Origin: Chitinophagaceae bacterium
Lineage (GTDB): Bacteria > Bacteroidota > Bacteroidia > Chitinophagales > Chitinophagaceae
Direction: 5' to 3'
Assembly (NCBI GenBank): GCA_013696395.1
Contig: JACCYQ010000128.1
Coordinates: 1-39,058, forward strand
DNA length: 39,058 nt
Shown here: in pieces, positions 4,601 through 39,058 of the stretch
Layout: every line of letters starts with the position of its first letter
How positions within the stretch are numbered: position 1 is the stretch's first letter
Position numbers and translations under genes: made by a program
The notes under the pieces: model-generated
Databases searched by the model: none
Told to the model about the DNA's origin: nothing
The model's input: the letters and a program-made list of their open reading frames with translations, nothing else

Positions 4601-4603
4601 TCC

Positions 4604-4990: not shown

Positions 4991-5033
4991 CCACTTTAAA
5001 GCTGTTGAGTTGTTAAGATAATGTTCAAACATC

Positions 5034-5063
5034 TTGCATAGATCATAATAAATTGTACATTTA
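5034..5063 (+). promoter_or_regulatory. Candidate Bacteroidota-type promoter of the His/Cys-motif lipoprotein gene
   Basis: TTG at 5034-5036 is followed after 19 bases by TACATTTA at 5056-5063, a seven-of-eight match to the Bacteroidota -7 box TAnnTTTG. The expected transcript start would be about 25 bases before the ATG at 5092. This is a pattern match only. Confidence 0.4.
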
Positions 5064-5091
5064 TTGTCCTCATTCACTTAACCCCGTTTCA

Positions 5092-10189: not shown

Positions 10190-12004
10190 TCAATGCTGAG
10201 ACTCATCTTCACCCACTTTTTCAGTTTGAGGGATGAATTCTCTGCCATCTTTACTATAATCATATGGCCACCTGTGGACTTCGGGAATCTCGCCGGTCCA
10301 GTTTCCGTGTCCCGGGTTGATAGGTGTAGTCCATTCTAAAGTATTTGCACCCCATGGATTGGTGGTAGTTAATTTGCGACCCTTAAACATGGAATAAAAA
10401 TAATTAAACACAAACATTAACTGGACGGCAAAAACAACGATGGAAACTATTGTAATGAATTTATTCAGTTCCGTAAATTGGTTAAAGGATGTCCATCCGC
10501 TAAGGTCAAGATATCGCCGGGGTACTCCAGCTAATCCCTCATAGTGCATAGGCCAGAATATAAGATAAGCGCCAGTGATGGTAACCCAAAAATGAATATA
10601 TCCAAGCGTATTATTCATGTAGCGCCCAAACATTTTTGGGAACCAATGGTAAATACCAGCTAACATACCAAACATAGATGACACACCCATAACGAGGTGG
10701 AAGTGAGCCACCACAAATTTGGTATCGTGCAGGTGAATGTCAATGGTTGAGTTACCTAAAAAAATACCTGTTAAACCACCTGAAATAAATACACTAACAA
10801 AACCAATAGCAAATAAAGTAGCCGGTGTAAACCGGATATTACCCCGCCAAATGGTAGTTAACCAGTTAAATACTTTTATAGCTGAAGGCACTGCAATTAA
10901 TAGTGTCAGTAATACAAACACCGAACCCAGGAATGGGTTAAGACCCGTTACAAACATATGATGTGCCCAAACCAGGAAGGCAAGAATGGTAATGGCAAAT
11001 AGAGAACCTATCATAGCCATATAGCCGAAAATGGGTTTTCTGGAATTTACACTGAGAATTTCAGATGTTAATCCCATAGCTGGTAAGGCGATAATATAAA
11101 CTTCAGGGTGACCGAGGAACCAAAACAAGTGCTGGTAAAGAATAGCGCTACCTCCTTCATTCGGCAAAATCTGACCATTTACATAAATATCACTCAAGTA
11201 AAAACTGGTTCCCAGGTGACGGTCAAATAACAATAGAATAAATCCTGATAATAAAACCGGGAATGATAGAACACCTAATACAGCTGTAAAGAACAAGGCC
11301 CAAATGGTTAATGGCATTCGAGTCATGCTCATTCCTTTAGTACGCATATTCAGGATGGTGGTAATGTAATTTAAACCACCCAGCAATGAAGAAACGACGA
11401 ATAATGCCATACTGATCAACCAAAGATCCATGCCTATTTTAGAACCTTCGGAAGCTTGACCTAATGCACTTAATGGTGGATAAACTGTCCATCCACCAGA
11501 TGCAGGGCCCGTTTGCACAAACAATGATGAAAGCATTACCACGCTGGCTGCAAAAAAGAACCAGTATGAAAGCATGTTCAGGAATGGTGATGCCATATCC
11601 CTTGCACCAATCTGGAGCGGAATTAGAAAATTGGCGAATGTTCCACTTAAACCTGCGGTTAATACAAAGAAAATCAGTACCGTTCCATGCATGGTAACCA
11701 GGGAATAATAGAATTCAGGTTGGATTCGTCCACCTTCTGCATTACGCCCAAAAAATGTTTCAAGGATTGGAAACGTTTCATCAGGATAACCTAATTGTAA
11801 GCGAAAAAGCACAGAAAATAAACCACCGATAATTGCCCAAATAATTCCTGTTGCAAGGAACTGTTTGGCAATCATTTTATGATCCTGGCTGAAAACATAT
11901 TTGGTAATAAAGGTTTCCTTATGATGGTGTACATGGTGTTCATCATGAAGATCAGCATGACTGGTTTCCGTACTGTGAATATTAGGGTTTACTTCGTTAC
12001 TCAT
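10190..12004 (-). CDS. coxA: Cytochrome c oxidase subunit I
   Basis: The 604-residue catalytic subunit contains the low-spin heme and the heme-CuB centre where oxygen is reduced. Visible ligands and channels: MHGTVLIFF (low-spin heme His), GHPEVYIIALP (CuB His, cross-linked Tyr and proton-path Glu), WAHHMFVTG (CuB histidines) and VAHFHLVMG (heme a3 and heme a histidines). Twelve or more membrane helices are present. The ATG at 12004 (MSNEVNPN) is preferred; an in-frame ATG at 12040 would overlap little but adds a 12-residue basic leader. The N-terminus is His-rich (HADLHDEHHVHHHKE), which might bind copper. It follows coxB with a 45 bp gap. Confidence 0.96.
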   Translation of the reverse strand: MSNEVNPNIHSTETSHADLHDEHHVHHHKETFITKYVFSQDHKMIAKQFLATGIIWAIIGGLFSVLFRLQLGYPDETFPILETFFGRNAEGGRIQPEFYYSLVTMHGTVLIFFVLTAGLSGTFANFLIPLQIGARDMASPFLNMLSYWFFFAASVVMLSSLFVQTGPASGGWTVYPPLSALGQASEGSKIGMDLWLISMALFVVSSLLGGLNYITTILNMRTKGMSMTRMPLTIWALFFTAVLGVLSFPVLLSGFILLLFDRHLGTSFYLSDIYVNGQILPNEGGSAILYQHLFWFLGHPEVYIIALPAMGLTSEILSVNSRKPIFGYMAMIGSLFAITILAFLVWAHHMFVTGLNPFLGSVFVLLTLLIAVPSAIKVFNWLTTIWRGNIRFTPATLFAIGFVSVFISGGLTGIFLGNSTIDIHLHDTKFVVAHFHLVMGVSSMFGMLAGIYHWFPKMFGRYMNNTLGYIHFWVTITGAYLIFWPMHYEGLAGVPRRYLDLSGWTSFNQFTELNKFITIVSIVVFAVQLMFVFNYFYSMFKGRKLTTTNPWGANTLEWTTPINPGHGNWTGEIPEVHRWPYDYSKDGREFIPQTEKVGEDESQH

Positions 12005-12049
12005 AATTATTTTTTTTAACTGACCGCTTGTGGCTGTCAAAAGAAATTT

Positions 12050-13114
12050 TTAATTCATTAATGTTGTTCCAGCAGCAGTTGGATTTACACTGGCTACTTT
12101 TACTGAATCTGTAATGGCAGGTGTATTAGCCGGATTTCTATCTGGGAAAGCCGCATAATACTGTGGCTGCTGGCTATACATCCACCTGTCAAATTCTTCT
12201 TGTGTAATAACTGTAATGGTACCCCTCATACTATAGTGACCTTTACCACACATCTGGTCACAGGATATTTCATAAACAAATTCTGCTCCCCATTTTTCTT
12301 TGGCCTGGGCAGTTGTAAATTTTGGCGTAAACCACATTGTAGTGGGAGTGCCTGGTACTGCATCCATTTTCATCCGGAAATGCGCAAGACCCACATCATG
12401 GATCACATCTTTTGCGTTGATGATCAACTTAACGGGCTTGTTTACTACAATCGGCATATCGCCCGTTACCACAATATCATCATGGTTAGCTGGATCATCC
12501 CATATCTGTCCCAACGGATTGGATTTGGCCTCATCTATTTCTTTAAAATATTTTTTGCCGAAAACACCATCTCTACCCGGATAGCGCATTTCCCATTTGA
12601 ACTGGCTACCGGTGATTTCAACAACTAATGCATTTTTTGGAGCATCGCCGGTAATTTTATACCAATAAAACAAACCAAAGCCCACTAAAACAGTTAGGGC
12701 AATAGCCGGTATAACCGTCCAGATCAATTCCAATTTATTGTTATGGGGAAAATAATATGATTTGCGGGTGTCTGATTCCTGGTATTTATAAGCAAACCAA
12801 AACAGTAATACCTGTGTAATGACGAATACAATACCAGTAAGGATGATGGTGATATAAAGCATCATATCAATCTTTTCACCATGATCTGAGGCTGATTCAC
12901 CTAACAATTTTCCTTTCAATGCTTCATTACAATAATATACCCCGATTAAGCCAACAATCAAAAAGATCAATAGCAAAAATCCATTTATCCGGTTCGACTG
13001 TTTTCTGGCCTTTTCTTCCCCCCTTAATATAGCCACATATTCACTGGCCTTTGCAATCTGAAATGTGATCACAAACCCAAGTATCAAAATTGCAATTATC
13101 AAAAAAGTTGACAT
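12050..13114 (-). CDS. coxB: Cytochrome c oxidase subunit II with CuA site
   Basis: The 354-residue subunit accepts electrons into its binuclear CuA centre. The CuA ligands are seen in DVIHDVGLAHFRMKMD (first His) and CDQMCGKGHYSMRG (two Cys, second His and Met). The residue between the two cysteines that is usually Glu is Gln here; that ligand acts through its backbone carbonyl. There appear to be four N-terminal hydrophobic helices rather than the two of the minimal family, the additional pair lying before residue 70. The C-terminus lacks any CxxCH, so this is not a caa3-type fusion; electrons must come from an Act heme domain or a separate cytochrome c. It is directly downstream of actF. 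Confidence 0.95.
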   Translation of the reverse strand: MSTFLIIAILILGFVITFQIAKASEYVAILRGEEKARKQSNRINGFLLLIFLIVGLIGVYYCNEALKGKLLGESASDHGEKIDMMLYITIILTGIVFVITQVLLFWFAYKYQESDTRKSYYFPHNNKLELIWTVIPAIALTVLVGFGLFYWYKITGDAPKNALVVEITGSQFKWEMRYPGRDGVFGKKYFKEIDEAKSNPLGQIWDDPANHDDIVVTGDMPIVVNKPVKLIINAKDVIHDVGLAHFRMKMDAVPGTPTTMWFTPKFTTAQAKEKWGAEFVYEISCDQMCGKGHYSMRGTITVITQEEFDRWMYSQQPQYYAAFPDRNPANTPAITDSVKVASVNPTAAGTTLMN

Positions 13115-13147
13115 ACGATATTCAGTTGTTAATGAATCAAATTATTT

Positions 13148-14395
13148 TTAAGTATGATGAATCAGGCTTTCTTTCAAAAAAGGATGATTTTTAGCTATCA
13201 ACGGTGCATTAGCTAAGGCCCTTGCTGTAAAAAACATGATCAATCCTACAAATCCCAACCCTATCCCCAGATCAGCCAACATCATAGGCACATGACTTAC
13301 ACTGGTTTCCGGATCTTTCATCGGACCGGGGAAAACCATTTGGTAAAAATCCATCCAATGCCCGAATAATATCAGGATACACATGAAAGTCAAGGTTCCA
13401 TAATTTCTTTTTGCGCCCCGGCTCATAAGAATTAATAAAGGCGCCAGGAAATTAATTATAACTGTTAACCAGAATATTCCATTCCATGCTCCTTCAACCC
13501 TGGGTTCAAAATATGTTGTTTCCTCAGGTATGTTTGCATACCATATCAACATGAATTGTGAGAACCACAGGTAGGTCCAGAAAACGGAAAATGCAAACAT
13601 AAATTTTCCCAGGTCATGCAAATGTTCCTCATTGGTAAATTCAAGATAACCCAGATTTTTAAGGTAAATAACAAAAATAGTTATCAGGGCAATGCCGGCA
13701 ACAAAGCTGCTGGCAAAAGTATACCAACTATACATGGTACTATACCAGTGAGCATCAATGCTCATCAACCATAACCAGGGAATAGAAGACATAACAGTGA
13801 GTGAAAAGAAAACAATAAAAATGGCGGCCCAAACTGTGTTGTCCCAAATATATTTTTTGGCGCCTGCATTGTCTAATGGCCTATCATCAATTTTGCGGGA
13901 CAACTGACGCAATTTTGCACCCAGCAAATTCCATCCTACCAGTGTAATTATAGTCCAGACAATAAAAAATCCTTTATTTAAAAATCCAGCTTTATGTAAT
14001 AATATTTTATCGTGTTTTACATGTTCCGTATCCGTCCAGTGGTAAATAGTGTGATTATCACTTAAAACAATAGCCAGTAAAATAATACCGGTTGTAATGC
14101 TTAATACAGGAACACAACTGGAGATAGCTTCCGAAACTCTTCTGAAAGACACTTGCCACCCTCCCCATGCTAGAGTAGTGGCAGCAATAAAAAACATAGC
14201 TGCATTAGTAACCAGTAAAAAATAAACACTGTTTTGAAGCAAGCTTGCCCAAAAACGGGCTTGCATACGATGATCGCCTGAAGCTCCATGCGTAATGAAA
14301 AGTATGATGATCGATAATAGTCCTACACCCATCAATCCCAGTGAAATTAGATTGAAGTTTTTTGTTTTTGAAAACTGTTCCCTTATTGCCATCAT
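13148..14395 (-). CDS. actF: Alternative complex III subunit ActF
   Basis: A 415-residue polytopic membrane protein of the quinol:cytochrome c oxidoreductase ActF family. About ten hydrophobic helices are visible, with conserved aromatic segments such as SSIPWLWLMSIDAHWYSTMY and FWTYLWFSQFMLIWYANIPE, plus GHWMDFYQMVFPGP near the C-terminus. In the complex, ActF pairs with ActC, to which it is structurally related, and may contribute to proton translocation; it has no cofactor motifs of its own. It comes between actE and coxB with 36 and 33 bp gaps, so it links the Act genes and oxidase genes in one transcription unit. A second ATG follows immediately, so the start is uncertain by one codon. 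Confidence 0.93.
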   Translation of the reverse strand: MMAIREQFSKTKNFNLISLGLMGVGLLSIIILFITHGASGDHRMQARFWASLLQNSVYFLLVTNAAMFFIAATTLAWGGWQVSFRRVSEAISSCVPVLSITTGIILLAIVLSDNHTIYHWTDTEHVKHDKILLHKAGFLNKGFFIVWTIITLVGWNLLGAKLRQLSRKIDDRPLDNAGAKKYIWDNTVWAAIFIVFFSLTVMSSIPWLWLMSIDAHWYSTMYSWYTFASSFVAGIALITIFVIYLKNLGYLEFTNEEHLHDLGKFMFAFSVFWTYLWFSQFMLIWYANIPEETTYFEPRVEGAWNGIFWLTVIINFLAPLLILMSRGAKRNYGTLTFMCILILFGHWMDFYQMVFPGPMKDPETSVSHVPMMLADLGIGLGFVGLIMFFTARALANAPLIAKNHPFLKESLIHHT

Positions 14396-14431
14396 GAATC
14401 GTTTAAAATTCGCTTAATAATTATTCCAAAA

Positions 14432-15112
14432 TTAATTGGTTGCTGGTGCAGCCATAGCTGCACTATCCGATGTTACCGTTCCATTTCCTGTTGCTGCAGC
14501 AGCGGTTGAATCAGTTGCTGCAGGCTTGCTTCCACTTTGAATTGAACGCATATATTTTACCAGCATCCAACGTTGTTTAGGATTAACCTGGTGAGCATAA
14601 CTGCCCATTAATCCTTTTCCATAAGTTATAACATGATACATTGTTCCATCAGAAAGACCTTTGGAATAATCATCCAACAGATTCCTGGGTGCTGCAGGAT
14701 AAGGTCCATCACCTCCCTTCCATAAAGGACCATTTCCATCGAGTTTAGAACCATGACACACCGCACAGTTTACCAGGTATAATCTTTCTGCTTCTTTATA
14801 ATATGTTTCATCCATTTCTGGTAATGGATCCTGAACCGAAGATGATTGAGCATAACCTGTTGTATCATTCGATATATAATAGGGTTCCATTTCGCCACGT
14901 GCAATGGTTCCTTCAACAGGCATCGTGTTATAAAAAATACCCTGCTTTTGCAGTTCGGCGATTTTTTCCGCCGACATGGTATAGGTTTCATACGCCCGAC
15001 TATAAGCCATATCCGGCATGTAAGCATTATTTCGTGTATCATCTCCGCCACCGCATCCGATTGCTACTATGCCCATTGTTATGATACCGGCAGCTATAAA
15101 ACTTTTCTTCAT
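14432..15112 (-). CDS. actE: Alternative complex III monoheme cytochrome c subunit ActE
   Basis: A 226-residue lipoprotein cytochrome. The signal peptide ends at Cys20 (VAIGCGGG), the expected lipid anchor. The heme c attachment motif is CAVCH at residues 116-120, and GLMGSYAHQVNPKQRWMLV carries a likely axial Met. The tail after about residue 195 is Ala/Thr/Ser-rich low-complexity sequence. ActE faces the periplasm and is one candidate exit point for electrons to the oxidase CuA. It follows actD with a 50 bp gap and precedes actF. Confidence 0.94.
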   Translation of the reverse strand: MKKSFIAAGIITMGIVAIGCGGGDDTRNNAYMPDMAYSRAYETYTMSAEKIAELQKQGIFYNTMPVEGTIARGEMEPYYISNDTTGYAQSSSVQDPLPEMDETYYKEAERLYLVNCAVCHGSKLDGNGPLWKGGDGPYPAAPRNLLDDYSKGLSDGTMYHVITYGKGLMGSYAHQVNPKQRWMLVKYMRSIQSGSKPAATDSTAAAATGNGTVTSDSAAMAAPATN

Positions 15113-15162
15113 TAGCTCTTATTATAATTATGGATCAAATTGGATTAATCCACTGTAAATAA

Positions 15163-15759
15163 TTAATGTATAATCTCAGGTTCTGTTTTTATAAGTGTGT
15201 GCCTGTCATCTTTATCATACCGGCCTAACCACCATTCCGTTTCCTTCATTTCCACTGTAATATCTTTTCCGCCCAATTGCGCTAAAAATGCGATGGCCTG
15301 TTCTTCATTTGTTTTAGTTGTGCATTCGATGGCCATTACAAAAAGATCGTCGGTTGAACGAAGCCTGAAATGATCTTTTTTTACAAATGGTGCCAGCTGG
15401 CATAGGTAACAAAAAGTGAGTACCATGCCAACTGCGGAAAACAAAACAGTCAACTCGAATGTAATGGGAATCCAGGCTGGTAAAGCAAAATGTGGTTTAC
15501 CCCCAATATTCATGGGCCAATCGGTAGTAAAAATCCAGGTCATGAATGCTAATGCAGTAGCCGTTCCCATTATAGCATATACAAAACCTGCAGTATGCAA
15601 ACTTGTATCTCTTAAACCCATTGCTTTATCCAGGCCATGTATAGGGAAAGGGGTATACACGTCATGGATTTTATATCCCGATTTACGTACTTGCCTGATA
15701 GCTGGAAATAAAATTTCCTCATCATCAAAACTGGTTACTATGAATTTTTTTACCGACAT
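15163..15759 (-). CDS. actD: Alternative complex III subunit ActD (DUF3341)
   Basis: This 198-residue membrane protein belongs to DUF3341. It has a soluble N-terminal part (FIVTSFDDEEILFPAI and VYTPFPIHGLDKAMGL, the latter a strong family signature), two membrane helices (about residues 58-80 and 97-120), and a soluble C-terminal part. It has no cofactor motif; in known complexes it is a peripheral stabilising subunit. It lies between actC and actE in the standard act gene order. Confidence 0.94.
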   Translation of the reverse strand: MSVKKFIVTSFDDEEILFPAIRQVRKSGYKIHDVYTPFPIHGLDKAMGLRDTSLHTAGFVYAIMGTATALAFMTWIFTTDWPMNIGGKPHFALPAWIPITFELTVLFSAVGMVLTFCYLCQLAPFVKKDHFRLRSTDDLFVMAIECTTKTNEEQAIAFLAQLGGKDITVEMKETEWWLGRYDKDDRHTLIKTEPEIIH

Positions 15760-15770
15760 AAATTTATTTT

Positions 15771-15785
15771 AAGCTTTCAGCTGTT
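15771..15785 (-). repeat. Short AGCTnAA tandem remnant in the actC-actD gap
   Basis: On the minus strand the gap reads AACAGCTGAAAGCTT, two consecutive AGCTnAA-type heptamers. A related three-copy run is found in the actB-actC gap. It may be a remnant of a dispersed intergenic repeat; no function can be assigned. Confidence 0.4.
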
Positions 15786-15822
15786 GGCATATTCCACAAG
15801 CCTAATTTTATTAAACAAGTAA

Positions 15823-17274
15823 TCAATGATGTTTATCAACATGATGATCCGCAAATTCTTCTACTGATACTTTTTCAATTTCATCCATATTTTCTTTGTA
15901 TGACTCACCGTTCTTCTTTAGTATATGTTTGATCTCTGCAATTGCAATTACCGGGAAGAATTTAGAGAAAAGGAAATAACAGGTGAAAAATAATCCAAAA
16001 GTTCCCAGGAAAAAACCCACTTCCCAAATGGTTGGTGTATAGTAAGTACTCCATGCGGATGGCAGATAATCGCGGTAAACTGATGTAACGATGATCACAA
16101 AACGCTCGAACCACATACCTATATTAACCAAAATGGAAAGAAAAAATGTTACATACAGATTTCTTCTCATTTTTCTAAACCAAAAAATTTGAGGAAATAC
16201 AACGTTACAACTCATCATTATGTAATATGCCCACCCATAAGGACTCAAAATATTAGCCCTGTTTTCAAAAAACGCAAACTCTTCGTATTGAACTGCACTA
16301 TACCAGGCCATGAATAATTCGGTGAGATAAGCAATACCAACAATAGACCCTGTGAGAATAATTACTTTATTCATTACCTCAATATGCTCAATAGTAATAT
16401 ACTCCTGCAGGTTCAATACTTTACGGGTAACCAGTAAAAGGGTTTGCACCATAGCAAATCCGGAGAAGATGGCACCCGCCACAAAGTAAGGTGGAAAAAT
16501 AGTTGTGTGCCAGCCCGGAACTACAGATGTGGCAAAGTCAAAGGATACGATGGTGTGCACTGAAAGTACCAGGGGTGTTGCCAATCCTGCTAATACCAAT
16601 GAAAGGCTTTCATGGCGTTGCCAGTGTTTGGTTGAACCCGTCCATCCGAAAGAAAGTACACCGTACATGTGCTTGCGCCATTTTTTACGGGCACGATCCC
16701 TTAGCGTAGCGAGGTCTGGTAATAACCCTGAATACCAGAAAAGCAATGAAACGGTAAAGTAGGTTGAGATAGCGAATACGTCCCATAACAGCGGTGAATT
16801 AAAATTCACCCACAATGGTCCGCGGGTATTGGGGTAAGGCATTACAAAGAAAGCCATCCACACCCGACCCATGTGCCAGATCGGAAACTGACCGGCACAC
16901 ATTACCGCAAAAATAGTCATAGCTTCAGCCGCACGGTTTACTCCCGTTCTCCAGCCCTGGCGGAAAAGTAATAAGATAGCGGAAATCAATGTTCCTGCGT
17001 GACCAATCCCTACCCACCATACGAAATTGGTAATATCCCAACCCCAACCAATTGTTTTATTAAGATTCCATTGACCTACTCCGTAAGTAACTTCCATATA
17101 CACGGAAAAAACTCCGAATAATAAAAGGATGACTGATATGCCAAAACCAATCCACCATAATAAACTAGGGGCAGCTTCTACAGGGCGGCATATATCTTCA
17201 GTAATCTGGTGATAGTCTTTATGTCCTTCTACCAGTGGAGGTCTTACCTGTGATTCGTATCTGAGTAAACTCAT
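15823..17274 (-). CDS. actC: Alternative complex III integral membrane subunit ActC (NrfD family)
   Basis: The 483-residue NrfD-family protein is the main quinol-binding membrane subunit of the complex. It has about ten helices; conserved stretches include NFVWWVGIGHAGTLISAIL, RAAEAMTIFAVMCAGQFPI and VLSVHTIVSFDFATSVVPGW, which are typical of ActC and its relatives. Quinol oxidation on the periplasmic side feeds electrons to ActB/ActA. The C-terminal tail is charged and His-rich. It follows actB, separated by an 82 bp gap that contains a short AGCTnAA repeat. Confidence 0.95.
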   Translation of the reverse strand: MSLLRYESQVRPPLVEGHKDYHQITEDICRPVEAAPSLLWWIGFGISVILLLFGVFSVYMEVTYGVGQWNLNKTIGWGWDITNFVWWVGIGHAGTLISAILLLFRQGWRTGVNRAAEAMTIFAVMCAGQFPIWHMGRVWMAFFVMPYPNTRGPLWVNFNSPLLWDVFAISTYFTVSLLFWYSGLLPDLATLRDRARKKWRKHMYGVLSFGWTGSTKHWQRHESLSLVLAGLATPLVLSVHTIVSFDFATSVVPGWHTTIFPPYFVAGAIFSGFAMVQTLLLVTRKVLNLQEYITIEHIEVMNKVIILTGSIVGIAYLTELFMAWYSAVQYEEFAFFENRANILSPYGWAYYIMMSCNVVFPQIFWFRKMRRNLYVTFFLSILVNIGMWFERFVIIVTSVYRDYLPSAWSTYYTPTIWEVGFFLGTFGLFFTCYFLFSKFFPVIAIAEIKHILKKNGESYKENMDEIEKVSVEEFADHHVDKHH

Positions 17275-17281
17275 ATTTTTT

Positions 17282-17306
17282 CAGCTTTGAGCTTTAGCTA
17301 AGTGCT
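17282..17306 (-). repeat. Short AGCTnAA tandem run in the actB-actC gap
   Basis: On the minus strand the gap contains TAGCTAAAGCTCAAAGCTG, three consecutive imperfect AGCTnAA units. The same unit occurs in the actC-actD gap. No hairpin with a T-run accompanies it, so a terminator role is not supported. Confidence 0.45.
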
Positions 17307-17356
17307 ACGAGCAATTATGTTTATTTTCTGTCAAAATTTTTATACTGCCATTACAA

Positions 17357-20300
17357 TTAATGAACTGCAGCGGGTGCATCATCAATTGCATGTGCCTCGA
17401 GATCATCGGTTGTAATGATCTGGTCTGTATTCCTGATCTTAGCCAGGTAAGTAACATTAGGCAATGTGTGAATTTGTTCTATCACATAAAATGTCCTTAA
17501 CTGGTTATCGGCTCTTACTTTGCTGATAGCACTTTCCTTATCATTCACATTACCAAAAGTGATAGCATTTGTAGGGCAAGCTGATTGGCAGGCAGATGCT
17601 ACATCATTATCCTTTAATTGCCTGTTTTCTTTTTTAGCAGTTAGCTTAGCTTCTTGTGTTCGTTGCACACAGAAGGAACACTTCTCCATCACACCCCGAC
17701 TACGTACCGTAACATCAGGGTTCAGTACCATCCTGGTTAAATCATCATTCATATTAAGTACAACCGCTTCTAAAACCTGGCGCTGGTTATCATCGAAACT
17801 ATCAGCACCCATATAATCAGCCCAGTTAAAACGGCGAACTTTATAAGGACAGTTATTAGCGCAGTAACGTGTACCAATGCAGCGGTTATAAATCATTTGG
17901 TTAATACCTTCCGAGCTATGCATGGTTGCTGCAACCGGGCAAACGTTTTCACAAGGTGCATTATCACAATGCTGACAAAGCATAGGTTGAAATACAACAG
18001 CTTGTAAATCATCGGGATTATCTTCCTTTGAAACAAAATAACGGTCAATGCGCAACCAATGCATATCATGGTAACGCATTACTTCTTTTTTACCCACTAC
18101 CGGTACATTATTCTCACTATGACATGCAACTACACATGCATTGCAGCCCATACAACTATTCATATCTATAGCCATTCCCCACTTGGGACCAGGGTAAGGA
18201 TAATCTGGATATAGGGTTCCTTCTGTTCTGTAATCGCCGGTTTGCGGAGCATAAGTAGAATGTAAATGCTCCCGCTCTTCTTTAAACTGTTTAGGATTTT
18301 TAAGAAATGTCGCCATCGTAGTTTCTTTAACTACTTCTGTGCGATTTTCATATGAATTATGTATCTGGGTTTGTGCAATTTTATACTCGCCTACTTTATT
18401 CTCCGAAACGGTAATACCGGGGTTATGGAAATCAATAGTAGTACCATTAAAAATGGCCAATTGATTTACATTTTTGCCAATTTTATCCAGGCCTACACCA
18501 ATATTATTACTGCGTCCATAACCTACAGCGATTGCAATGGTATTGGCATTCATCCCAGGAATTACAAGAACTGGCAAGTCCAGTTCCTGGTTATTATAAG
18601 TAAAGCGAAGAACGGGTTTTGAAGGAAAGTATTCATACTTACTGTCTTTCCCTACAAAAAGTCCCATTTCATTAGCTTTGGCAAGGGGGATCATAGCATA
18701 ATTATCCCAGGTTGCTTTGGTTACCGGGTCAGGAAGTTCAAGTAACCAGGGATTGGCACCACTTGCTGTATTATTAACTGCTACAGTCTGGTAAAGGACA
18801 ATTTCATACTTACCGGATTGTTTGTTAGTTGCAAGTCCGGATGCAGCTGCTGAGGTATTGGCACTATTAAAAGCACCGGCACCCAGGGAAGGAGTAACGG
18901 TTGCTATACCTATTGTATCAGTTAATGACTGTGATATACCAGGTAAAGCAGATTGACCATTTTCCAGTACTCCATCCTGCAAAGCTTTATTGAATGCTTG
19001 TTTGCCTAATTTCACTTCCCAATATGTTTTAAAAAAACTATCGTAATCATTAGTATTACCACTCCACTTCATTAATGATGTCTGGTAAGGTCGGGTTTTA
19101 AATACCGGATTTATGGTTGGTTGAATAAAACTGATATACCCGGATTTGGGTTCTGTATCGCCCCAGCTTTCAAGATAATGAGGAGCAGGAACAGCGAAAT
19201 GACACAGTTCTGTAGTTTCATCCAGTTTACTATTGAAAGAAACCGCCAGCCTCACTTTTTTCATTCCCTCTTTAAAACCCGCTGCATTATAAAAAGTATA
19301 AGCTGGGTTAGCGCCGTAAATAAATAATGCACCAACCTGTCCGGCATTCATTTGTGAAACCAGGTCAACGAGGTCTTTATCAATACCCTGGCGAATATTT
19401 AAAGTTTCAGACCAGTTAATGGATTTACCATAAGCACCGATCTGGTTATTAATTGCATTGACGATGGATTGAACATTTACATCATTACTGCCTGAAATTA
19501 CCAAACCACCATTGGCCTTAAGATCTGCAGCAACTTTTGCAATTCCTGCCTTCAGTTTTGCATCACTAATATTTGGAACAGATACTGCACCGCCCAATGC
19601 ACTTAATATTGCCATGGCAACTGCACCTGTTTCAGATGGACGGTGGGTAAATCTTTCATCTGCATTGGAACCTGTCTGGGTTAAATAGCTTTCAAACTGG
19701 TAATGTTTACTCATTGCCGGTTTTGCCTCATCAATTTTTCTGTTAACGACCCATTGTGATGCAAATTCTACCGGGTTCAGCCAGGTACCCAGGAAATCTG
19801 CCCCAAGACTTACAATCACCTTTGCATTTTCAAAATGGTAAGAAGGAATGGCCCTTCTTCCAAAGGATGCTTCATTGGCCAATAACATACCACTATATGA
19901 ATCAGCATCTGCCTGTACATGTCTGCTTCCAGGGTATTTTGCCAGGAATTCTGAAATAATTTGTTTAGTTGTTGGTGAAGTGATAGTTGTAGATAGAAAA
20001 ACCACCGGGGCCGTTCCGATCTTCGCTAATTCATCACCAATTAATTTATCAACTTGTGCATAGGTAGGGATTTCTTCAAATCGGCCTTCACTTACTTTTC
20101 TTTTTGGGTGAGGTAAACGAAATGAATCATATAAATCAAGCACTGATGCCTGTGCTCTTGCGGAAGTTCCTCCCTTAGTATAATTGCAAAGTTTATTGCC
20201 TTCTATTTTTATAGGACGACCATCTCTTACTTTGGCTATGATTGGTAAAACATCTCCATCCTGTACATAAGTAGTGGCATAATATTTTGCTACACCCGGT

Positions 20301-20548
20301 ACCAGGTTTTCAGGTTGATTGGCAAATGGTATTGCCTTTTGTACCGGTGCTTCACAACTGGCAGCCAATGAAGCAGCAGCTGTGGTAAAACCCAAATATT
20401 TCAAAAAGTCCCTGCGGGGGGCTTTAGCATCCAGCCAGCCCTGTTCATCGGTAGGAAGATCTTCCTGAAATTCATTTTGCGCTAATTTCTTAAAGCCTTC
20501 TGCATTGTTCAGTTCGCCAAAACTTTGCCAGTACTTTTTATCGCTCAT
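17357..20548 (-). CDS. actB: Alternative complex III iron-sulfur subunit ActB (molybdopterin-like and ferredoxin domains fused)
   Basis: This 1063-residue periplasmic subunit fuses a molybdopterin oxidoreductase-like domain (a form that in known ActB lacks the Mo cofactor) to a four-cluster ferredoxin domain. An internal twin-arginine motif, RRDFLKYLG, starts at residue 45 and is followed by a lipobox-like LAASC with Cys65. The cluster-binding cysteines are in CMGCNACVVACH (near residue 799), CQHCDNAPCENVCP (near 859), CIGTRYCANNCPY (near 892), CSFCVQRT (near 956) and CQSACPTN (near 990). Family knowledge predicts three [4Fe-4S] clusters and one [3Fe-4S] cluster. It passes electrons from quinol to the hemes. 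It is the second gene, 72 bp after actA. Confidence 0.95.
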   Translation of the reverse strand: MSDKKYWQSFGELNNAEGFKKLAQNEFQEDLPTDEQGWLDAKAPRRDFLKYLGFTTAAASLAASCEAPVQKAIPFANQPENLVPGVAKYYATTYVQDGDVLPIIAKVRDGRPIKIEGNKLCNYTKGGTSARAQASVLDLYDSFRLPHPKRKVSEGRFEEIPTYAQVDKLIGDELAKIGTAPVVFLSTTITSPTTKQIISEFLAKYPGSRHVQADADSYSGMLLANEASFGRRAIPSYHFENAKVIVSLGADFLGTWLNPVEFASQWVVNRKIDEAKPAMSKHYQFESYLTQTGSNADERFTHRPSETGAVAMAILSALGGAVSVPNISDAKLKAGIAKVAADLKANGGLVISGSNDVNVQSIVNAINNQIGAYGKSINWSETLNIRQGIDKDLVDLVSQMNAGQVGALFIYGANPAYTFYNAAGFKEGMKKVRLAVSFNSKLDETTELCHFAVPAPHYLESWGDTEPKSGYISFIQPTINPVFKTRPYQTSLMKWSGNTNDYDSFFKTYWEVKLGKQAFNKALQDGVLENGQSALPGISQSLTDTIGIATVTPSLGAGAFNSANTSAAASGLATNKQSGKYEIVLYQTVAVNNTASGANPWLLELPDPVTKATWDNYAMIPLAKANEMGLFVGKDSKYEYFPSKPVLRFTYNNQELDLPVLVIPGMNANTIAIAVGYGRSNNIGVGLDKIGKNVNQLAIFNGTTIDFHNPGITVSENKVGEYKIAQTQIHNSYENRTEVVKETTMATFLKNPKQFKEEREHLHSTYAPQTGDYRTEGTLYPDYPYPGPKWGMAIDMNSCMGCNACVVACHSENNVPVVGKKEVMRYHDMHWLRIDRYFVSKEDNPDDLQAVVFQPMLCQHCDNAPCENVCPVAATMHSSEGINQMIYNRCIGTRYCANNCPYKVRRFNWADYMGADSFDDNQRQVLEAVVLNMNDDLTRMVLNPDVTVRSRGVMEKCSFCVQRTQEAKLTAKKENRQLKDNDVASACQSACPTNAITFGNVNDKESAISKVRADNQLRTFYVIEQIHTLPNVTYLAKIRNTDQIITTDDLEAHAIDDAPAAVH

Positions 20549-20620
20549 TTATATCCGTTTGAAAATTGAAAAAAAATTGAACTTCACTTAATTGTATCAC
20601 CTCTTAAATTGAAATAAGGG

Positions 20621-21895
20621 TTAATAATGGCATTTCTGGCATTCAGTACCACCAATATCGCTAACAGTTACGCTATCCATTTTACCCGAAGCCAAATCAT
20701 TATGGAATTTTTCGTAAATACTATAAAACTTATTACCGGTACTATCGCCTTCATTATAAAAATTAACCTTGGTTTCCCTGTGACAGTTAACACACCATCC
20801 CATACTCAATTCTGAAAATTGAGAAACTACGTCCATATCCTGGATGGGACCATGACAGGTCTGGCATTGTACATTTCCTGCTTTTACGTGTTGAGAGTGA
20901 TTAAAGTAAACATGGTCAGGCAGGTTGTGGATCTTGATCCATTCCACTGGTTTTGCTTTAGCCGGATCCCAATCATTAGGCCTTGCAGGATCAAAACCAG
21001 CATATTTATATAGTTTGGCAATTTCAGCCGTTCCATCAACCTCCCTTCCATCCTCAGTATATAATTGGGGACCCTTCTCATAACTGCTGATAGCTTTATG
21101 GCAGTTCATACAGGTATTTACTGAAGGAATGGCTGCGTGTTTACTTTCCATGGCGCTGCCATGGCAATACAAACAACTGATCTGGTTAATGCCAGCATGA
21201 ACCTTATGAGAATAATAGATGGGCTGTTCAGGCATATATCCTTTATCGCGGCCCAGCTTAATAGCCCCTTTAGCCAAATAATAGCCGCCTACCACAAAGA
21301 ACACCATCGCAAACATGGCTATATAAATCTTATTACGATAAAATGGAACAGGATCTGGACGCCTGATATTTTCTTTATCGTCTGATAACTTTTTCAGATT
21401 GCTGTTCACTTGCATCAGTATCAGGGCAATGACGGCCAGGATCAGCGATAAAATACCAAAGAATATGGAATTGCGGTTTGAATTATCAGGTGCGCCCTCT
21501 GGTACAGGCCCTCCCGTTGGAGTTCCCCCAGGAGGAGGTGCGGTTGCTACATATTCCGCAATGGCGTCAATTTCCTCATTGGTTAATTGGGGAAATGCCT
21601 GCATAATGGTACCATATTGGTTCTTAAGCTGGCTGGCATAATCACTTGTAGCTAAATACGCAGCCGGATTGTGTACCCATTTATACAATTCTTCCCGGTC
21701 ACCCCAGGGACCGCGCTCCAGAAAACCTCTTAATGCGGGACCGGTTAAATTCTTATCCAGCGAATGACAGATCTGGCAATTAGTTTGATATAGTACTTTT
21801 CCATCCTGTGCTGCAATGTCAGTCGTTAAAAACAGGGCAACCAGCGTAAATAAAAAAAGACTTATCCTCTTAATGATTGGTTTACAAGGAAGCAT
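20621..21895 (-). CDS. actA: Alternative complex III multiheme cytochrome subunit ActA, six CxxCH motifs
   Basis: The 424-residue protein begins with a signal peptide (about residues 1-30), then a monoheme cytochrome c domain with CQICH at 40-44 and candidate axial Met98 in GTIMQAF. Two hydrophobic helices follow (about 144-161 and 189-208). The C-terminal part is the multiheme domain with CxxCH motifs beginning at Cys241, Cys262, Cys344, Cys368 and Cys419. ActA in the family is described as pentaheme, so the N-terminal domain adds a sixth heme here. An in-frame GTG two codons upstream (21901) is possible; the ATG at 21895 was preferred. It is the first gene of the respiratory cluster, behind a promoter-like sequence. 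Confidence 0.94.
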   Translation of the reverse strand: MLPCKPIIKRISLFLFTLVALFLTTDIAAQDGKVLYQTNCQICHSLDKNLTGPALRGFLERGPWGDREELYKWVHNPAAYLATSDYASQLKNQYGTIMQAFPQLTNEEIDAIAEYVATAPPPGGTPTGGPVPEGAPDNSNRNSIFFGILSLILAVIALILMQVNSNLKKLSDDKENIRRPDPVPFYRNKIYIAMFAMVFFVVGGYYLAKGAIKLGRDKGYMPEQPIYYSHKVHAGINQISCLYCHGSAMESKHAAIPSVNTCMNCHKAISSYEKGPQLYTEDGREVDGTAEIAKLYKYAGFDPARPNDWDPAKAKPVEWIKIHNLPDHVYFNHSQHVKAGNVQCQTCHGPIQDMDVVSQFSELSMGWCVNCHRETKVNFYNEGDSTGNKFYSIYEKFHNDLASGKMDSVTVSDIGGTECQKCHY

Positions 21896-21944
21896 AGACA
21901 CAAAAAATCTAAAAAGTGTAGATAAAAATCCTGATAATCGGCTG

Positions 21945-33264: not shown

Positions 33265-36200
33265 ATGAGTAACAACGAAGATCGGATTGCAGACCTTGAA
33301 CTTGCGCTTGCAGAAAAATCAGCCCAACTTGACCAGCGTACGGAAGAACTCGCGGTAATTAACAGCGTGCAGAATGGCCTGGCCAAAAAGATGGATATCC
33401 AGTCTATTTATGAATTAGTGGGTGAAAAGATCCGCCATATTTTTAATGCACAGATCATTGATATTGTTACCTACGATGCTGAAACTAATTTATTAGAAGA
33501 TCGGTATGCTTATGAAAAAGGCGATCGCACCCTGGTAGGCACCTGGGAGCCTGCCGGCTTCAGGGAACTGGTTATTAAAACCGGGCAATTATTATTAATA
33601 AATGAGGACCTGGAAGAAAGAAGTCAGCAGTTTAAGAGTGCAGTTATTCATGGGTCTTTACCAAAATCTGTGGTATTTGTTCCGTTAAAATCAGGCAATG
33701 AAGTAAAAGGGATGATCAGTCTCCAGGATCTTGATAAAGAACATGCTTTTTCGGAGAATGATGTAAACCTGCTAACTACACTGGCTAATAGTATGAGTGT
33801 AGCACTGGAAAATGCCAGGTTGTTTGACGAAACAAATAGTTTACTGAAGCAAACCGAACAACGTACCGCTGAACTGGCTGTAATCAACAGCGTACAGGAA
33901 GGACTAGCACGTGAACTCGATATCCAGGCCATTTATGAATTGGTTGGTGAAAAAATGAGGGAAATATTCAGCGCCCAGGTCATTGACATTGCTACTTATG
34001 ATAAAAGAACAAACCTGATAGAGGATCGCTATTCCTTTGAAAAGGGGGACAGGTCACTGCTGGGACCCAGAGAACCACAGGGATTTAGAAAATACGTGAT
34101 TGAATCCCGCCAAGGACAGGTAATAAATGAGGATATAAAAAACAGAATGCTTGAATATGATAATAAAGTGCTGCTGGGGGAAGAATCAAAGTCTGTACTT
34201 TTTGTACCCCTGATCTCCGGAGGCGAAGTGAAAGGCATTATCAGTTTACAGGATCTTGATAAAGAACATGCTTTTTCCGATTCGGATGTAAGTCTGATGA
34301 CCACGCTTGCTAACAGCATGAGTGTAGCGCTGGAGAATGCAAGGCTGTTTGATGAAACCAACAGCCTCTTAAAACAAACCGAACAAAGAACCGCAGAACT
34401 CGCTGTAATAAACAGCGTACAGGAAGGGCTTGCCCGTGAACTGGATATCAAGGCCATTTATAACCTGGTGGGTGAAAAAATGCGGGAGATCTTCAATGCA
34501 CAGGTTATCGATATTGTAACCTACGATAAAAAAACAAACCTCATCGAAGACCGATATTCTTTTGAGAAAGGAGACAGATCATTAGTAGGTCCCAGGGAAC
34601 CGAAAGGCTTTAGAGAACATGTGATAAAAACAGCCCAGCCCCTGGTAATTAATAAAGATGTTGAAGGGAAACGTTCTACTTATGATAATACGGTTGTCGT
34701 TGGCGAAGCAGCCAAATCACTGGTACTGGTTCCAATGATTGCCAGCGGATCGGTTAATGGCGTCATCAGTTTGCAGAATGTGGATGAAGAAAATGCATTT
34801 TCTGAACCGGATATAAACCTCTTAACTACACTGGCCAATAGTATGAGCGTGGCACTGGAAAGTGCACGTCACTTCAATGAAACTATCAGCCTCTTAAAAC
34901 AAACCGAACAAAGAACCGCTGAACTGGCCGTCATCAATAGTGTACAGGAAGGGCTTGCCCGTGAAATGGATATTCAGGGTATTTATGAATTGGTAGGAGA
35001 AAAAATGCGGGAGATCTTCAATGCACAGGTCATTGATATTGTAACATACGAAAGAAAATCAAACCTGATTGAAGACCGCTATGCCTATGAAAAAGGTGAC
35101 CGTTCTATGCTGGGACCCAGGGAACCCAAAGGCTTTCGTAAACATGTGATTGAAACAGGCGAAATGCTTTTGCATAATGAAGGTGTAGAAGAAGCAAGCG
35201 TTCAGTATGGTAATGAATTATTGATTGGGGACATGGCTAAATCACAGGTATTTTTTCCACTAACTTCCAGTGGAAAAGTGGCAGGGATCATAAGCCTGCA
35301 AAATTTGGATTATGAAAATGCATTTACCGATTCGGATATCAGTTTGTTAACCACACTGGCCAATAGTATGAGTGTGGCATTGGAAAGTGCACGCCTGTTT
35401 GATGAAACTACAAACCTGCTAAAACAAACCGAACAACGCACTGCAGAATTAGGGGTGATTAACAGCGTGCAGGAAGGACTGGCCCGCGAACTGGACATCC
35501 AGGCCATTTATGAATTGGTAGGTGAAAAGATCCGCGAAATTTTCAATGCACAAGTCATAGATATTGTCACTTACGATAAGAGAACGGATCTTATTGAAGA
35601 TCGTTATGCCTACGAAAAGGGTGACACCACTATACTGGGTCCTAGAAAACCAAAAGGATTTCGCAAACATTTAATAGAAACCGGCCAACTAATTATTATC
35701 AATAAAGATTATGAGGAAAAAAGTATTACCTATAATAATACGGTTCTGATCGGAGATCATCCAAAATCGATCGTCCTAGTCCCGATGAAATCAGGTAACA
35801 ATTTAACCGGCATTATCAGTTTACAAAACCTGGATAAGGAAGATGCTTTTTCTGATTCAGATATCAGCCTTTTGACTACCCTTGCAAACAGTATGAGTGT
35901 TGCTTTAGAAAATGCACGTCTGTTTGATGAAACCAACCGCCTCCTTAAAGAAACCGAACAACGCAATGCGGAATTGGCTGTTATCAATAGTGTGCAGGAA
36001 AGCCTGGTTGCAAAAATGGATATACAAGGCATTTATGAATTAGTAGGAGAAAAAATAAGAGAAATATTCAATGCCCAGGTCATTGACATTGTTACCTATG
36101 ATCCCGTTAAAAACCTGGTAGAAGATCAATATTCATACGAAAAAGGAGACCGCACATTACTGGGCCCAAGAGCTCCCAAAGGCTTTCGGAAACATGTAAT

Positions 36201-39058
36201 TCATACCCGGCAAACATTGGTCATCAATGATCATGCAGATGAAATGGCTGTTGAATTCAACAATGAAATAATGATCGGGGAAAAACCTAAATCAATTGTT
36301 TTAGTGCCGCTCATTGCCGGCGGCGATCTTACCGGAATTATCAGTTTACAAAACGTAGATAAAGAACATGCCTTTCCCGAATCTGATGTCAAGCTACTTA
36401 CAACGTTAGCCAATAGCATGAGTGTAGCTTTGGAGAATGCAAGACTTTTTGATGAAACCAGCCGGCTGTTAAAAGAAACCGAACAAAGAACCGCGGAACT
36501 GGCGGTGATCAATAGCGTGCAGGAGGGCCTTGCACACGAATTGGATATTCAATCTATATATGATTTAGTGGGTGATCGAATCCGCGACCTGTTCAAAGCA
36601 CAAGGAGTTATTATTGCAAACCTTGACCCCGAAAAAGGTCTGGAACATTTTAAATATGCTATGGAAAACGGAAAGCGTTTTCAGTTACAGCCCCGGCCAC
36701 TTGATAAATTGCGCCAGCACCTGATCCGAACCAGGCAAAAGATTGTTATCAATAAAAACTTTGAAGAAGCCTTTTCCAATTTTGGAATGAAAGTGGCCCC
36801 TGGAACAGAACTTCCTCAATCGGCTGTTTATGTACCATTGATCATTGGTGATAAGATAACCAGTTATGTAAGCCTGCAAAATGTGGATGAAGAAAATGCA
36901 TTCAGTGAATCAGACGTACGCTTATTGGAAACTTTATCCAACAGCATGAGCGTTGCATTAGAGAATGCACGCTTATTTGATGAAACCAATCGCTTATTGA
37001 AAGAAACCGAACAAAGAACGGCAGAACTCGCCGTTATCAACAGTGTGCAGGAAGGTCTGGCAAAAGAACTGGATATGCAGGCCATCTATGACCTGGTAGG
37101 TGAAAGGATCGGTCAGCTATTTGTAAATGCACAGGCTATTATCATTGCGAACCTTGACCTGGAAAGTAAAGTGGAAACTTTCAATTATACTATTGAACAT
37201 GGAAATAGATTTTATCCTGAATCCCGGCCATTTGATAAATTAAGAAAACACCTGGTACAGACAAAACAAAAAGTGGTTATAAATAATGCTGGAGAATCTT
37301 TTGTTTGGTTTGGAAATAAAACGGTAGCAGGAACAAAACCGATGCAATCCGGCGCATTTGTCCCATTGATTATTGGCAATAAAATTACCAGTTATATCAG
37401 TCTGCAAAATGTTGACAAAGAAGATGCTTTCAGCGATTCTGATATCCGCTTACTTGAAACACTTGCCAATAGTATGAGCGTTGCTTTGGAAAATGCAAGA
37501 CTCTTTGATGAAACAAACCGCTTATTAAAAGAGACCGAGCAAAGGACTGCTGAACTCGCGGTGATTAATGGTGTCCAGGATGGCCTGGCTCGTGAACTGG
37601 ATATGCAGGCTATCTATAACCTGGTAGGTGATCGTTTGTGCATGTTGTTTCCTGATACCCAAACATTGGTTATCCGCACTTTCGATCAAAAAACCATGAT
37701 GGAAGATTTTCAATATGCCATTGAAAAAGGTGAACGTATGCAGGTTGAGCCAAGGCCTTTAATCTGGGCAAATAAACTTCTTGTAAAAACAAAACAATCC
37801 CTTCTCATTAATGAGAATTACGAGGAAATTTCCAGGAAGTATGGAGGAACGGGCGTTACCAAAGGTCAGCCACCTAAATCCGCTGTTTTTGTTCCTATGA
37901 TCGTAGGCGATGTAGTTAAAGGATCCATCAGCCTGCAAAATGTAGACAAAGAAGATGCATTTACAGATTCAGACCTTCGCTTATTAACTACATTATGTAA
38001 CAGTATGAGTGTGGCGCTGGAAAATGCCCGCCTCTTTGATGAAACCACACACTTGTTAAAAGAAACGGAACAACGTACTGCCGAACTTGCTGTGATAAAT
38101 AGTGTGCAGGATGGCCTGGTTAGAGAAATGGATATCAATGCTATCTACGAACTGGTTGGTGAAAGATTGTGTAACCTGTTTAATACACAAACAGTTTTGA
38201 TCAGAACTTTTGACCATGAAAATGAACTTGAGCATTGGCGTTATGTTATTGAAAAAGGAGAAAGGCATTACAGTGAGCCACGCCCTTTAATCTGGGCTAA
38301 TAAGCACCTGATTGAAAATCGTAAGCCTGTCATCATCAATGAAAATTACCTGGAAACATCCACAAAATATGGCGGCTCGGGCGTTTCAATGGGCTTACCA
38401 CCTAAATCCGGGGTGTTTGTTCCTATGATTGTTGGTGATGTAGTAAGAGGTTCTGTGAGTCTGCAGAATGTGGAAATGGAAAATGCGTTCAGTGAATCAG
38501 ACATGCGCCTGTTAACCACCATTACCAACAGCATGAGTGTGGCATTGGAAAATGCTCGGCTATTTGATGAAACCACGCACCTGCTGAAAGAAACAGAGCA
38601 ACACAAAGCTGAATTAGCAGTAATTAATAGTGTTCAGGAAGGACTGGTTCGTGAAATGGATATGAAAGCCATTTATGAATTGGTTGGAAACCGCATTTGC
38701 GAATTATTTGATACTCAAACTGTATTGATCAGGACTTTTAATCATAAAGCTCGAAATGAAGAATGGCAATTTGTTATAGAAAAAGGAGAACGTTTATATA
38801 GCAAGCCGCGTCCTTTTAATTGGGCAAACCAGCTTCTGATTAAAACAAAACAATCTCTAATTATTAACGAAAACTATTTAGACATTGCCAAAGAACATGG
38901 AGGAACTGGTGTTACAAAAGGATTACCTCCGAAATCTGCCGTATTTGTCCCCATGATTGTGGGTGATGTGGTTAGGGGTTCAGTGAGCTTGCAGAATGTA
39001 GAAAAAGAAAATGCTTTTAGTGAAGCAGATCTGCGGTTACTCACAACGCTTACCAACA
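33265..39058 (+). CDS. Giant tandem-GAF-domain protein (3' end beyond the window)
   Basis: From the ATG at 33265 a single frame stays open for 1931 codons to the window edge. There is no signal peptide or membrane helix, so this part is cytoplasmic. A short N-terminal coiled-coil-like helix (EDRIADLELALAEKSAQLDQ) leads into the first linker. At least eleven GAF units follow, each about 175-177 residues: a helix such as AVINSVQEGLARELDIQAIY, the GAF sheet region, and FSDSDISLLTTLANSMSVAL, then the linker helix ENARLFDETNRLLKETEQ. GAF domains bind small ligands or cofactors or mediate dimerisation; here no cofactor cysteine or cyclic-nucleotide NKFDE pattern was found. An output domain (histidine kinase, cyclase, phosphatase or other) is expected downstream but is not visible. 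Expression signals are unclear. Confidence 0.93.
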   Translation, partial: MSNNEDRIADLELALAEKSAQLDQRTEELAVINSVQNGLAKKMDIQSIYELVGEKIRHIFNAQIIDIVTYDAETNLLEDRYAYEKGDRTLVGTWEPAGFRELVIKTGQLLLINEDLEERSQQFKSAVIHGSLPKSVVFVPLKSGNEVKGMISLQDLDKEHAFSENDVNLLTTLANSMSVALENARLFDETNSLLKQTEQRTAELAVINSVQEGLARELDIQAIYELVGEKMREIFSAQVIDIATYDKRTNLIEDRYSFEKGDRSLLGPREPQGFRKYVIESRQGQVINEDIKNRMLEYDNKVLLGEESKSVLFVPLISGGEVKGIISLQDLDKEHAFSDSDVSLMTTLANSMSVALENARLFDETNSLLKQTEQRTAELAVINSVQEGLARELDIKAIYNLVGEKMREIFNAQVIDIVTYDKKTNLIEDRYSFEKGDRSLVGPREPKGFREHVIKTAQPLVINKDVEGKRSTYDNTVVVGEAAKSLVLVPMIASGSVNGVISLQNVDEENAFSEPDINLLTTLANSMSVALESARHFNETISLLKQTEQRTAELAVINSVQEGLAREMDIQGIYELVGEKMREIFNAQVIDIVTYERKSNLIEDRYAYEKGDRSMLGPREPKGFRKHVIETGEMLLHNEGVEEASVQYGNELLIGDMAKSQVFFPLTSSGKVAGIISLQNLDYENAFTDSDISLLTTLANSMSVALESARLFDETTNLLKQTEQRTAELGVINSVQEGLARELDIQAIYELVGEKIREIFNAQVIDIVTYDKRTDLIEDRYAYEKGDTTILGPRKPKGFRKHLIETGQLIIINKDYEEKSITYNNTVLIGDHPKSIVLVPMKSGNNLTGIISLQNLDKEDAFSDSDISLLTTLANSMSVALENARLFDETNRLLKETEQRNAELAVINSVQESLVAKMDIQGIYELVGEKIREIFNAQVIDIVTYDPVKNLVEDQYSYEKGDRTLLGPRAPKGFRKHVIHTRQTLVINDHADEMAVEFNNEIMIGEKPKSIVLVPLIAGGDLTGIISLQNVDKEHAFPESDVKLLTTLANSMSVALENARLFDETSRLLKETEQRTAELAVINSVQEGLAHELDIQSIYDLVGDRIRDLFKAQGVIIANLDPEKGLEHFKYAMENGKRFQLQPRPLDKLRQHLIRTRQKIVINKNFEEAFSNFGMKVAPGTELPQSAVYVPLIIGDKITSYVSLQNVDEENAFSESDVRLLETLSNSMSVALENARLFDETNRLLKETEQRTAELAVINSVQEGLAKELDMQAIYDLVGERIGQLFVNAQAIIIANLDLESKVETFNYTIEHGNRFYPESRPFDKLRKHLVQTKQKVVINNAGESFVWFGNKTVAGTKPMQSGAFVPLIIGNKITSYISLQNVDKEDAFSDSDIRLLETLANSMSVALENARLFDETNRLLKETEQRTAELAVINGVQDGLARELDMQAIYNLVGDRLCMLFPDTQTLVIRTFDQKTMMEDFQYAIEKGERMQVEPRPLIWANKLLVKTKQSLLINENYEEISRKYGGTGVTKGQPPKSAVFVPMIVGDVVKGSISLQNVDKEDAFTDSDLRLLTTLCNSMSVALENARLFDETTHLLKETEQRTAELAVINSVQDGLVREMDINAIYELVGERLCNLFNTQTVLIRTFDHENELEHWRYVIEKGERHYSEPRPLIWANKHLIENRKPVIINENYLETSTKYGGSGVSMGLPPKSGVFVPMIVGDVVRGSVSLQNVEMENAFSESDMRLLTTITNSMSVALENARLFDETTHLLKETEQHKAELAVINSVQEGLVREMDMKAIYELVGNRICELFDTQTVLIRTFNHKARNEEWQFVIEKGERLYSKPRPFNWANQLLIKTKQSLIINENYLDIAKEHGGTGVTKGLPPKSAVFVPMIVGDVVRGSVSLQNVEKENAFSEADLRLLTTLTN
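33361..39058 (+). repeat. Tandem array of eleven ~525-531 bp coding repeats (GAF units, last one partial)
   Basis: Measured from each N(S/G)VQ codon, units begin at 33361, 33886, 34411, 34936, 35461, 35986, 36511, 37039, 37567, 38098 and 38626. The first six periods are exactly 525 bp; later ones are 528, 528, 531 and 528 bp, all keeping frame. The protein units are similar while the DNA differs at many synonymous sites, so this is an old array under selection. Units 1-6, 7-8 and 9-11 form three sequence classes (VTYD, IANLD and IRTFD after the first GAF strand). Unit 11 is cut by the window end. Confidence 0.95.

What the first reader, a model, noticed from the sequence alone, without database searches (positions are those of the whole stretch)
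33265..39058. Giant cytoplasmic protein with at least eleven tandem GAF domains and no output domain yet
The sequence shows one uninterrupted frame of at least 1931 codons made of near-regular GAF units. Ordinary signalling proteins carry one to a few GAF domains. A stack this long, joined by a nearly invariant helix with the ENARLFDET...LLK(Q/E)TEQRTAELAVINSVQ pattern, could be a rigid rod that transmits or integrates a signal over a long distance, a multi-ligand sensor, or a scaffold. Inference: the effector lies past the window edge.
Basis: partly seen in the sequence, partly recalled or inferred. Interest (0 to 1): 0.75.

Follow-up and report, generated by a model that had tools for sequence, protein, structure and literature searches.

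The report
Giant twelve-GAF hybrid histidine kinase
This bacterium encodes one very long sensor protein made of twelve near-regular sensor (GAF) units on an apparently continuous helical spine that ends in a histidine kinase and sits beside a nucleotide-cyclase gene, so it probably adds up many internal signals into one cyclic-nucleotide response; the parts are ordinary, but the length and strict regularity are not.

Summary
The open frame 33265-39058 carries ten complete GAF units and nearly all of an eleventh, and runs off the contig. Another contig of the same genome starts with the window's last 127 bases; joined in frame, the protein is 2609 aa: 12 GAF domains, HisKA, HATPase_c, a receiver and a conserved pseudo-receiver. 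'No output domain' is therefore only a contig edge. Directly downstream lie a lone receiver, a GAF-class III cyclase, an HD protein and a Cap15-like membrane protein. The kinase-cyclase pairing recurs in Bacteroidota, Chloroflexota, Betaproteobacteria and others: 30 of 36 complete GAF-array hybrid kinases, against 1 of 8 arrays on kinases without a receiver. Of 431 inter-GAF linkers, 428 are exactly 44 or 37 residues, one heptad apart, while GAF cores vary from 123 to 142; the last GAF-to-histidine distance is mostly 41 or 34. AlphaFold gives unbroken 53-residue linker helices and one 78-residue helix into the kinase. I read it as a dimeric coiled-coil spine integrating many GAF inputs, with cyclic-nucleotide output. 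Ligands are unknown; bilin and canonical cNMP-binding motifs are absent. It is an extreme new variant of hybrid histidine kinases; the longest published GAF series I found has seven.

The parts
33265..39058 (+). Giant hybrid histidine kinase gene, first 1931 codons; continues on contig C59 (L009 1-2163) to 2609 aa
33406..33798 (+). GAF1 core (group A)
33931..34323 (+). GAF2 core (group A)
34456..34848 (+). GAF3 core (group A)
34981..35373 (+). GAF4 core (group A)
35506..35898 (+). GAF5 core (group A)
36031..36423 (+). GAF6 core (group A)
36556..36951 (+). GAF7 core (group B)
37084..37479 (+). GAF8 core (group B)
37612..38010 (+). GAF9 core (group C)
38143..38538 (+). GAF10 core (group C)
38671..39058 (+). 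GAF11 core (group C), cut 8 bases short by the contig end
33799..33930 (+). First 44-residue inter-GAF helical linker; the other ten linkers between GAF cores, including the one across the contig join, have the same length
38932..39058 (+). 127 bases shared exactly with the start of contig C59, at the end of GAF11 and start of the next linker; assembly junction

Best explanation
The gene encodes a soluble hybrid histidine kinase with twelve GAF input domains. Two copies probably pair side by side, so that the helices leaving each GAF form one long parallel coiled coil that runs unbroken into the kinase's dimerisation helix. Each GAF can bind a small molecule or partner and nudge helix twist or register; the shifts add along the spine and set the kinase/phosphatase balance. 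Phosphate passes to the attached receiver and to the lone receiver encoded next door, and the adjacent GAF-class III cyclase is the likely output, making a cyclic nucleotide that may be handled by the HD protein and the Cap15-like membrane protein of the same gene row. Shown: domain order, linker lengths, predicted helices, conserved neighbourhood. Inferred: dimerisation, ligand binding by most GAFs, phosphotransfer to the lone receiver, control of the cyclase, and the nature of its product.
For: Full architecture. H-box SHELRTP, DTGIG and receiver ILLDIMMP present. 428 of 431 linkers are 44 or 37 aa, whereas GAF cores vary from 123 to 142 aa; last core to phospho-His is 41 (26 proteins) or 34 (12). 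AlphaFold: 53-residue linker helices and a 78-residue helix 202-279 from GAF12 into the kinase, holding H258. Structural neighbours are dimeric tandem-GAF proteins such as PDE2A, CyaB2 and PDE5/6, and phytochromes. A cyclase follows 30 of 36 complete hybrid kinases with room downstream and 16 of 16 with the pseudo-receiver tail. Heptad-dependent linkers control real histidine kinases and diguanylate cyclases (PMC6798134, PMC9587094).
Against: No ligand is known for any unit; the canonical cNMP motif is absent from all 498 units tested. The models are single chains with low pTM (0.49 and 0.35), so neither the dimer nor the overall shape is shown. Six of 36 hybrid kinases lack a detected cyclase next door. 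In the cyclase, the usual substrate lysine is glutamine, so its product is unsure.
Confidence: 0.6

Rival explanations
1. Spacer: most GAF units bind nothing; they are packing modules on a rigid rod that places a distal sensor, partner or N-terminus far from the kinase, and only one or two GAFs sense.
For: The linker helix is far better conserved than many GAF positions; the kinase-proximal GAF is the one position kept across arrays, last units matching last units in 45 of 50 cases; some relatives carry an N-terminal propeller with a Y_Y_Y domain, a distal sensor.
Against: Unit types are shared between species on supported branches, so units have kept distinct identities; this protein has no distal sensor domain.
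Confidence: 0.25
2. Non-adaptive expansion: near-identical linkers promote recombination, so unit number drifts and most units are tolerated passengers.
For: Unit number varies from 3 to 15 among complete relatives; some arrays show recent local duplication (L036, and L052 units 5-8).
Against: In this protein none of 12 units has its closest relative in the same protein; linker length holds to the heptad across phyla; frames stay open over thousands of codons.
Confidence: 0.12
3. The unit number is an assembly artefact.
For: The contig ends inside the array, and several relatives' contigs also end inside arrays.
Against: Units differ from each other by 28% or more; uninterrupted arrays lie inside long contigs of an isolate genome (Flavisolibacter ginsengisoli DSM 18119) and of a 4-contig genome (G163).
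Confidence: 0.03

Closest known systems
PtxD and other multi-GAF cyanobacteriochromes (PMC5812497, PMC6696110)
   Same: Many tandem GAFs in one receptor; up to seven GAFs, at least six of them sensing in PtxD.
   Different: No bilin cysteine here: GAF1-8 and GAF12 hold no cysteine at all; 12 units here and up to 15 in relatives; histidine kinase with a cyclase gene row.
Tandem-GAF cyclic-nucleotide proteins (Anabaena CyaB2, PDE2/5/6)
   Same: Closest solved structures: GAF-helix-GAF; CyaB2 also links GAFs to a class III cyclase.
   Different: Only two GAFs; NKFDE motif absent here (0 of 498 units); here cyclase and GAF array are separate proteins, bridged by a kinase.
Hybrid histidine kinases with receivers (TorS/BarA type by NCBIfam score)
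   Same: HisKA, HATPase_c and receiver in order.
   Different: No specific NCBIfam model shown reaches its cut-off; giant GAF input; degenerate second receiver.
Signalling helix (S-helix), PMC1592074
   Same: Helical linker between signalling domains, with a Q-R-T/N-A-E-L core resembling the ERT signature.
   Different: Repeated eleven times in one protein; longer helix; the E of ERT is Q.

Membership tests
Hybrid histidine kinase | Phospho-accepting His in HisKA, ATP-binding HATPase_c, and a receiver with acceptor Asp in one chain | tested here: met
   SHELRTP, DTGIG, ILLDIMMP; Pfam above cut-offs
Hybrid histidine kinase | Autophosphorylation and phosphotransfer | not testable with these tools
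   needs purified protein
Cyanobacteriochrome | Bilin-binding cysteine in GAF domains | tested here: not met
   No Cys in GAF1-8 and 12; no Cys column above 30% in 497 cores
cNMP-binding tandem GAF (PDE/CyaB2) | NKFDE motif | tested here: not met
   0 of 498 units
Signalling helix | ERT signature in a parallel coiled coil between signalling domains | tested here: inconclusive
   Position suits; motif is mostly QR(T/N); no dimer modelled
Class III nucleotide cyclase (downstream gene) | Metal Asp pair, transition-state Asn/Arg, substrate Lys | tested here: inconclusive
   FADI, GDAIM and DTVNTASR present; substrate Lys is Gln
Pycsar / CBASS defence | Cyclase plus cognate effector giving phage defence | tested here: inconclusive
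   Cap15-like 2TM protein and PycC-model hits; PycTM after the cyclase in L096; no CD-NTase identified beside it; function not testable here

The most novel reading that the evidence does not exclude
The locus is a phosphorelay-gated cyclic-nucleotide effector pathway: a modular GAF-array kinase surveys the cell state and switches a non-standard class III cyclase whose product triggers a membrane effector of the Cap15/PycTM kind, so that a Pycsar- or CBASS-like response is under two-component control with an exchangeable multi-unit sensor.
Probability: 0.12. Interest if true: 0.82.

Novelty: new variant of a known kind. Interest (0 to 1): 0.58.

Why it matters
It shows how far modular input to one kinase can be extended, and offers a natural test of the coiled-coil register model: many linkers per chain, nearly all at one of two lengths a heptad apart. 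The recurring kinase-cyclase gene row in several phyla points to a widespread route from many GAF inputs to a cyclic nucleotide that I did not find described, with membrane effectors of immune type in some copies. Cultured species such as Flavisolibacter ginsengisoli carry it, so it can be tested.

Tried and rejected
Assembly artefact: rejected (units diverged, intact relatives). Bilin photoreceptor and canonical cNMP-binding GAF: motifs absent. Recent duplication within this protein: rejected, as its units group with other species' units. Whole-gene transfer between phyla: not shown; the Bacteroidota kinases form one clade, though the same array type sits on two kinase types (hybrid SHELRTP and receiver-less AHEIKNP). 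Crossing-over at linkers: weak support only (the two halves of a core agree on their closest foreign unit in 175 of 497; neighbours across a linker share a partner protein in 80 of 423). One linker rule for all multi-GAF proteins: a distant array (G047) has mostly 47/48 and 54/55, also about 7 apart but with another offset. Literature searches for giant GAF arrays found nothing beyond seven GAFs. Promoter and terminator scan of the gene row was near the shuffled background.

Full report
What is there. The frame 33265-39058 is open for 1931 codons and runs into the window's end. The window is the end of contig C21 of a genome of 234 contigs, 84% complete. Pfam finds eleven GAF_2 stretches. Units recur every 175-177 residues in three groups: 1-6, 7-8 and 9-11.

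Past the edge. Contig C59 starts with the last 127 bases of C21, exactly. The joined frame gives 2609 residues: a twelfth, divergent GAF, then HisKA, HATPase_c and a receiver, then an 84-residue tail that reads as a pseudo-receiver with Asn in place of the acceptor Asp. That tail, ending in FLVYQ or close to it, is kept in 16 proteins, so it is no truncation artefact. The join keeps the frame and the 44-residue linker. Units 10 and 11 are closest to penultimate or near-penultimate units of other arrays and unit 12 to last units, which also supports it. A break in the assembly still allows a missing copy.

Neighbourhood. On C59 the kinase is followed, with gaps of about 20-45 bases, by a lone receiver (126 aa), a GAF-class III cyclase (559 aa), an HD protein (196 aa) and a protein with the Cap15 cyclic-dinucleotide receptor domain (210 aa). 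A scan of one genome for each of 84,980 species found 220 related stretches; 69 loci were kept and read. The array kinase is followed by a class III cyclase, either fused to a receiver (about 350 aa) or as receiver plus GAF-cyclase (about 560 aa), in 30 of 36 complete hybrid kinases with at least 1.5 kb of sequence downstream; arrays on kinases without a receiver have it in 1 of 8. The cyclase was not part of the query. The HD protein recurs after the cyclase in Bacteroidota and Chloroflexota loci; other followers are a second Cap15-like protein (L050), a PycTM protein (L096) and a cNMP-binding SpoIIE phosphatase (L081). Many followers are unrelated, so these are hints only.

The spine. With a GAF-core model that excludes the linker, 378 linkers are 44 residues, 50 are 37, and three differ (11, 55, 55), out of 431; GAF cores range from 123 to 142 residues. 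The distance from last core to the phospho-His is 41 or 34 in 38 proteins. Loci were seeded with two linker motifs, so some bias to this type is built in, but each protein brings many unselected linkers. AlphaFold of three units (110-row alignment, pLDDT 87.5, pTM 0.49) gives single 53-residue helices; of the C-terminal 720 residues (pLDDT 77, pTM 0.35) it gives one helix, 202-279, from GAF12 into HisKA. Register-dependent coiled-coil linkers are established for LOV and phytochrome receptors, and regularly spaced GAF/PAS series have been argued to integrate signals that way (PMC6798134, PMC9587094).

Evolution. In a tree of 498 units only 67 have their nearest relative in the same protein (shuffled mean 7), and none of the window's twelve does. 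Several window units fall in supported groups with units of other species at other positions, for example units 1, 3, 8 and 10. Last units match last units in 45 of 50 cases. Unit types are thus older than this array, and arrays look like mixtures from a shared stock with a fixed kinase-side unit. The array is rare in the family: 8 of 149 genomes, 8 of 95 genera. Some relatives put a propeller and Y_Y_Y domain in front of the array, and one has TPRs and PAS domains; the window's copy has none.

Ligands. There is no cysteine in GAF1-8 and 12, and no NKFDE motif in any unit. Ligands are unknown. The partner cyclase keeps metal and transition-state residues but has Gln where adenylate cyclases have the substrate Lys (residue roles from general knowledge of class III cyclases), as do most partners of this type, so I do not name the product.

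Judgement. Architecture and output domain: near certain. Cyclase as output: likely, by conserved neighbourhood. Multi-input integration along a coiled-coil spine: the best reading, unproven.

Noticed in passing
contig C59 (L009) 4303-4893 and 4937-5569: HD protein and Cap15-like 2TM membrane protein closely follow the cyclase (gaps of 19 and 43 bases); PADLOC calls the second a 2TM effector (82.5 bits).
   Followed up: partly
L009 2604-4283 and partner cyclases in related loci: Class III cyclases with NQ(Y/F/M)xGD: Gln in place of the substrate lysine in most partners, Lys in a second type.
   Followed up: partly
L096 3814-4398; L081 8727-10064: PycTM (Pycsar effector) and a cNMP-binding SpoIIE phosphatase directly after receiver-cyclase genes beside GAF-array kinases.
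   Followed up: partly
L036, L051 (also L044, L082, L089): The same GAF arrays end in a receiver-less kinase; in L036 and L051 it has an AHEIKNP box instead of SHELRTP: output-module exchange.
   Followed up: partly
L055 2767-14371: Two adjacent giant GAF-array kinases in tandem (Pelomonas sp. V22), followed by one receiver-cyclase.
   Followed up: no
L083 15432-18083: A second class III cyclase fused to an FGE-sulfatase domain and a hydrolase, directly after the operon cyclase.
   Followed up: no
window 10190-21901: Ordinary respiratory cluster on the minus strand: cytochrome c, Fe-S protein, NrfD, cytochrome oxidase subunits I and II.
   Followed up: no
G047 C316 and C475 (L028, L115, L127): A separate, distant multi-GAF protein type with linkers of 54/55 and 47/48, again about one heptad apart.
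   Followed up: partly
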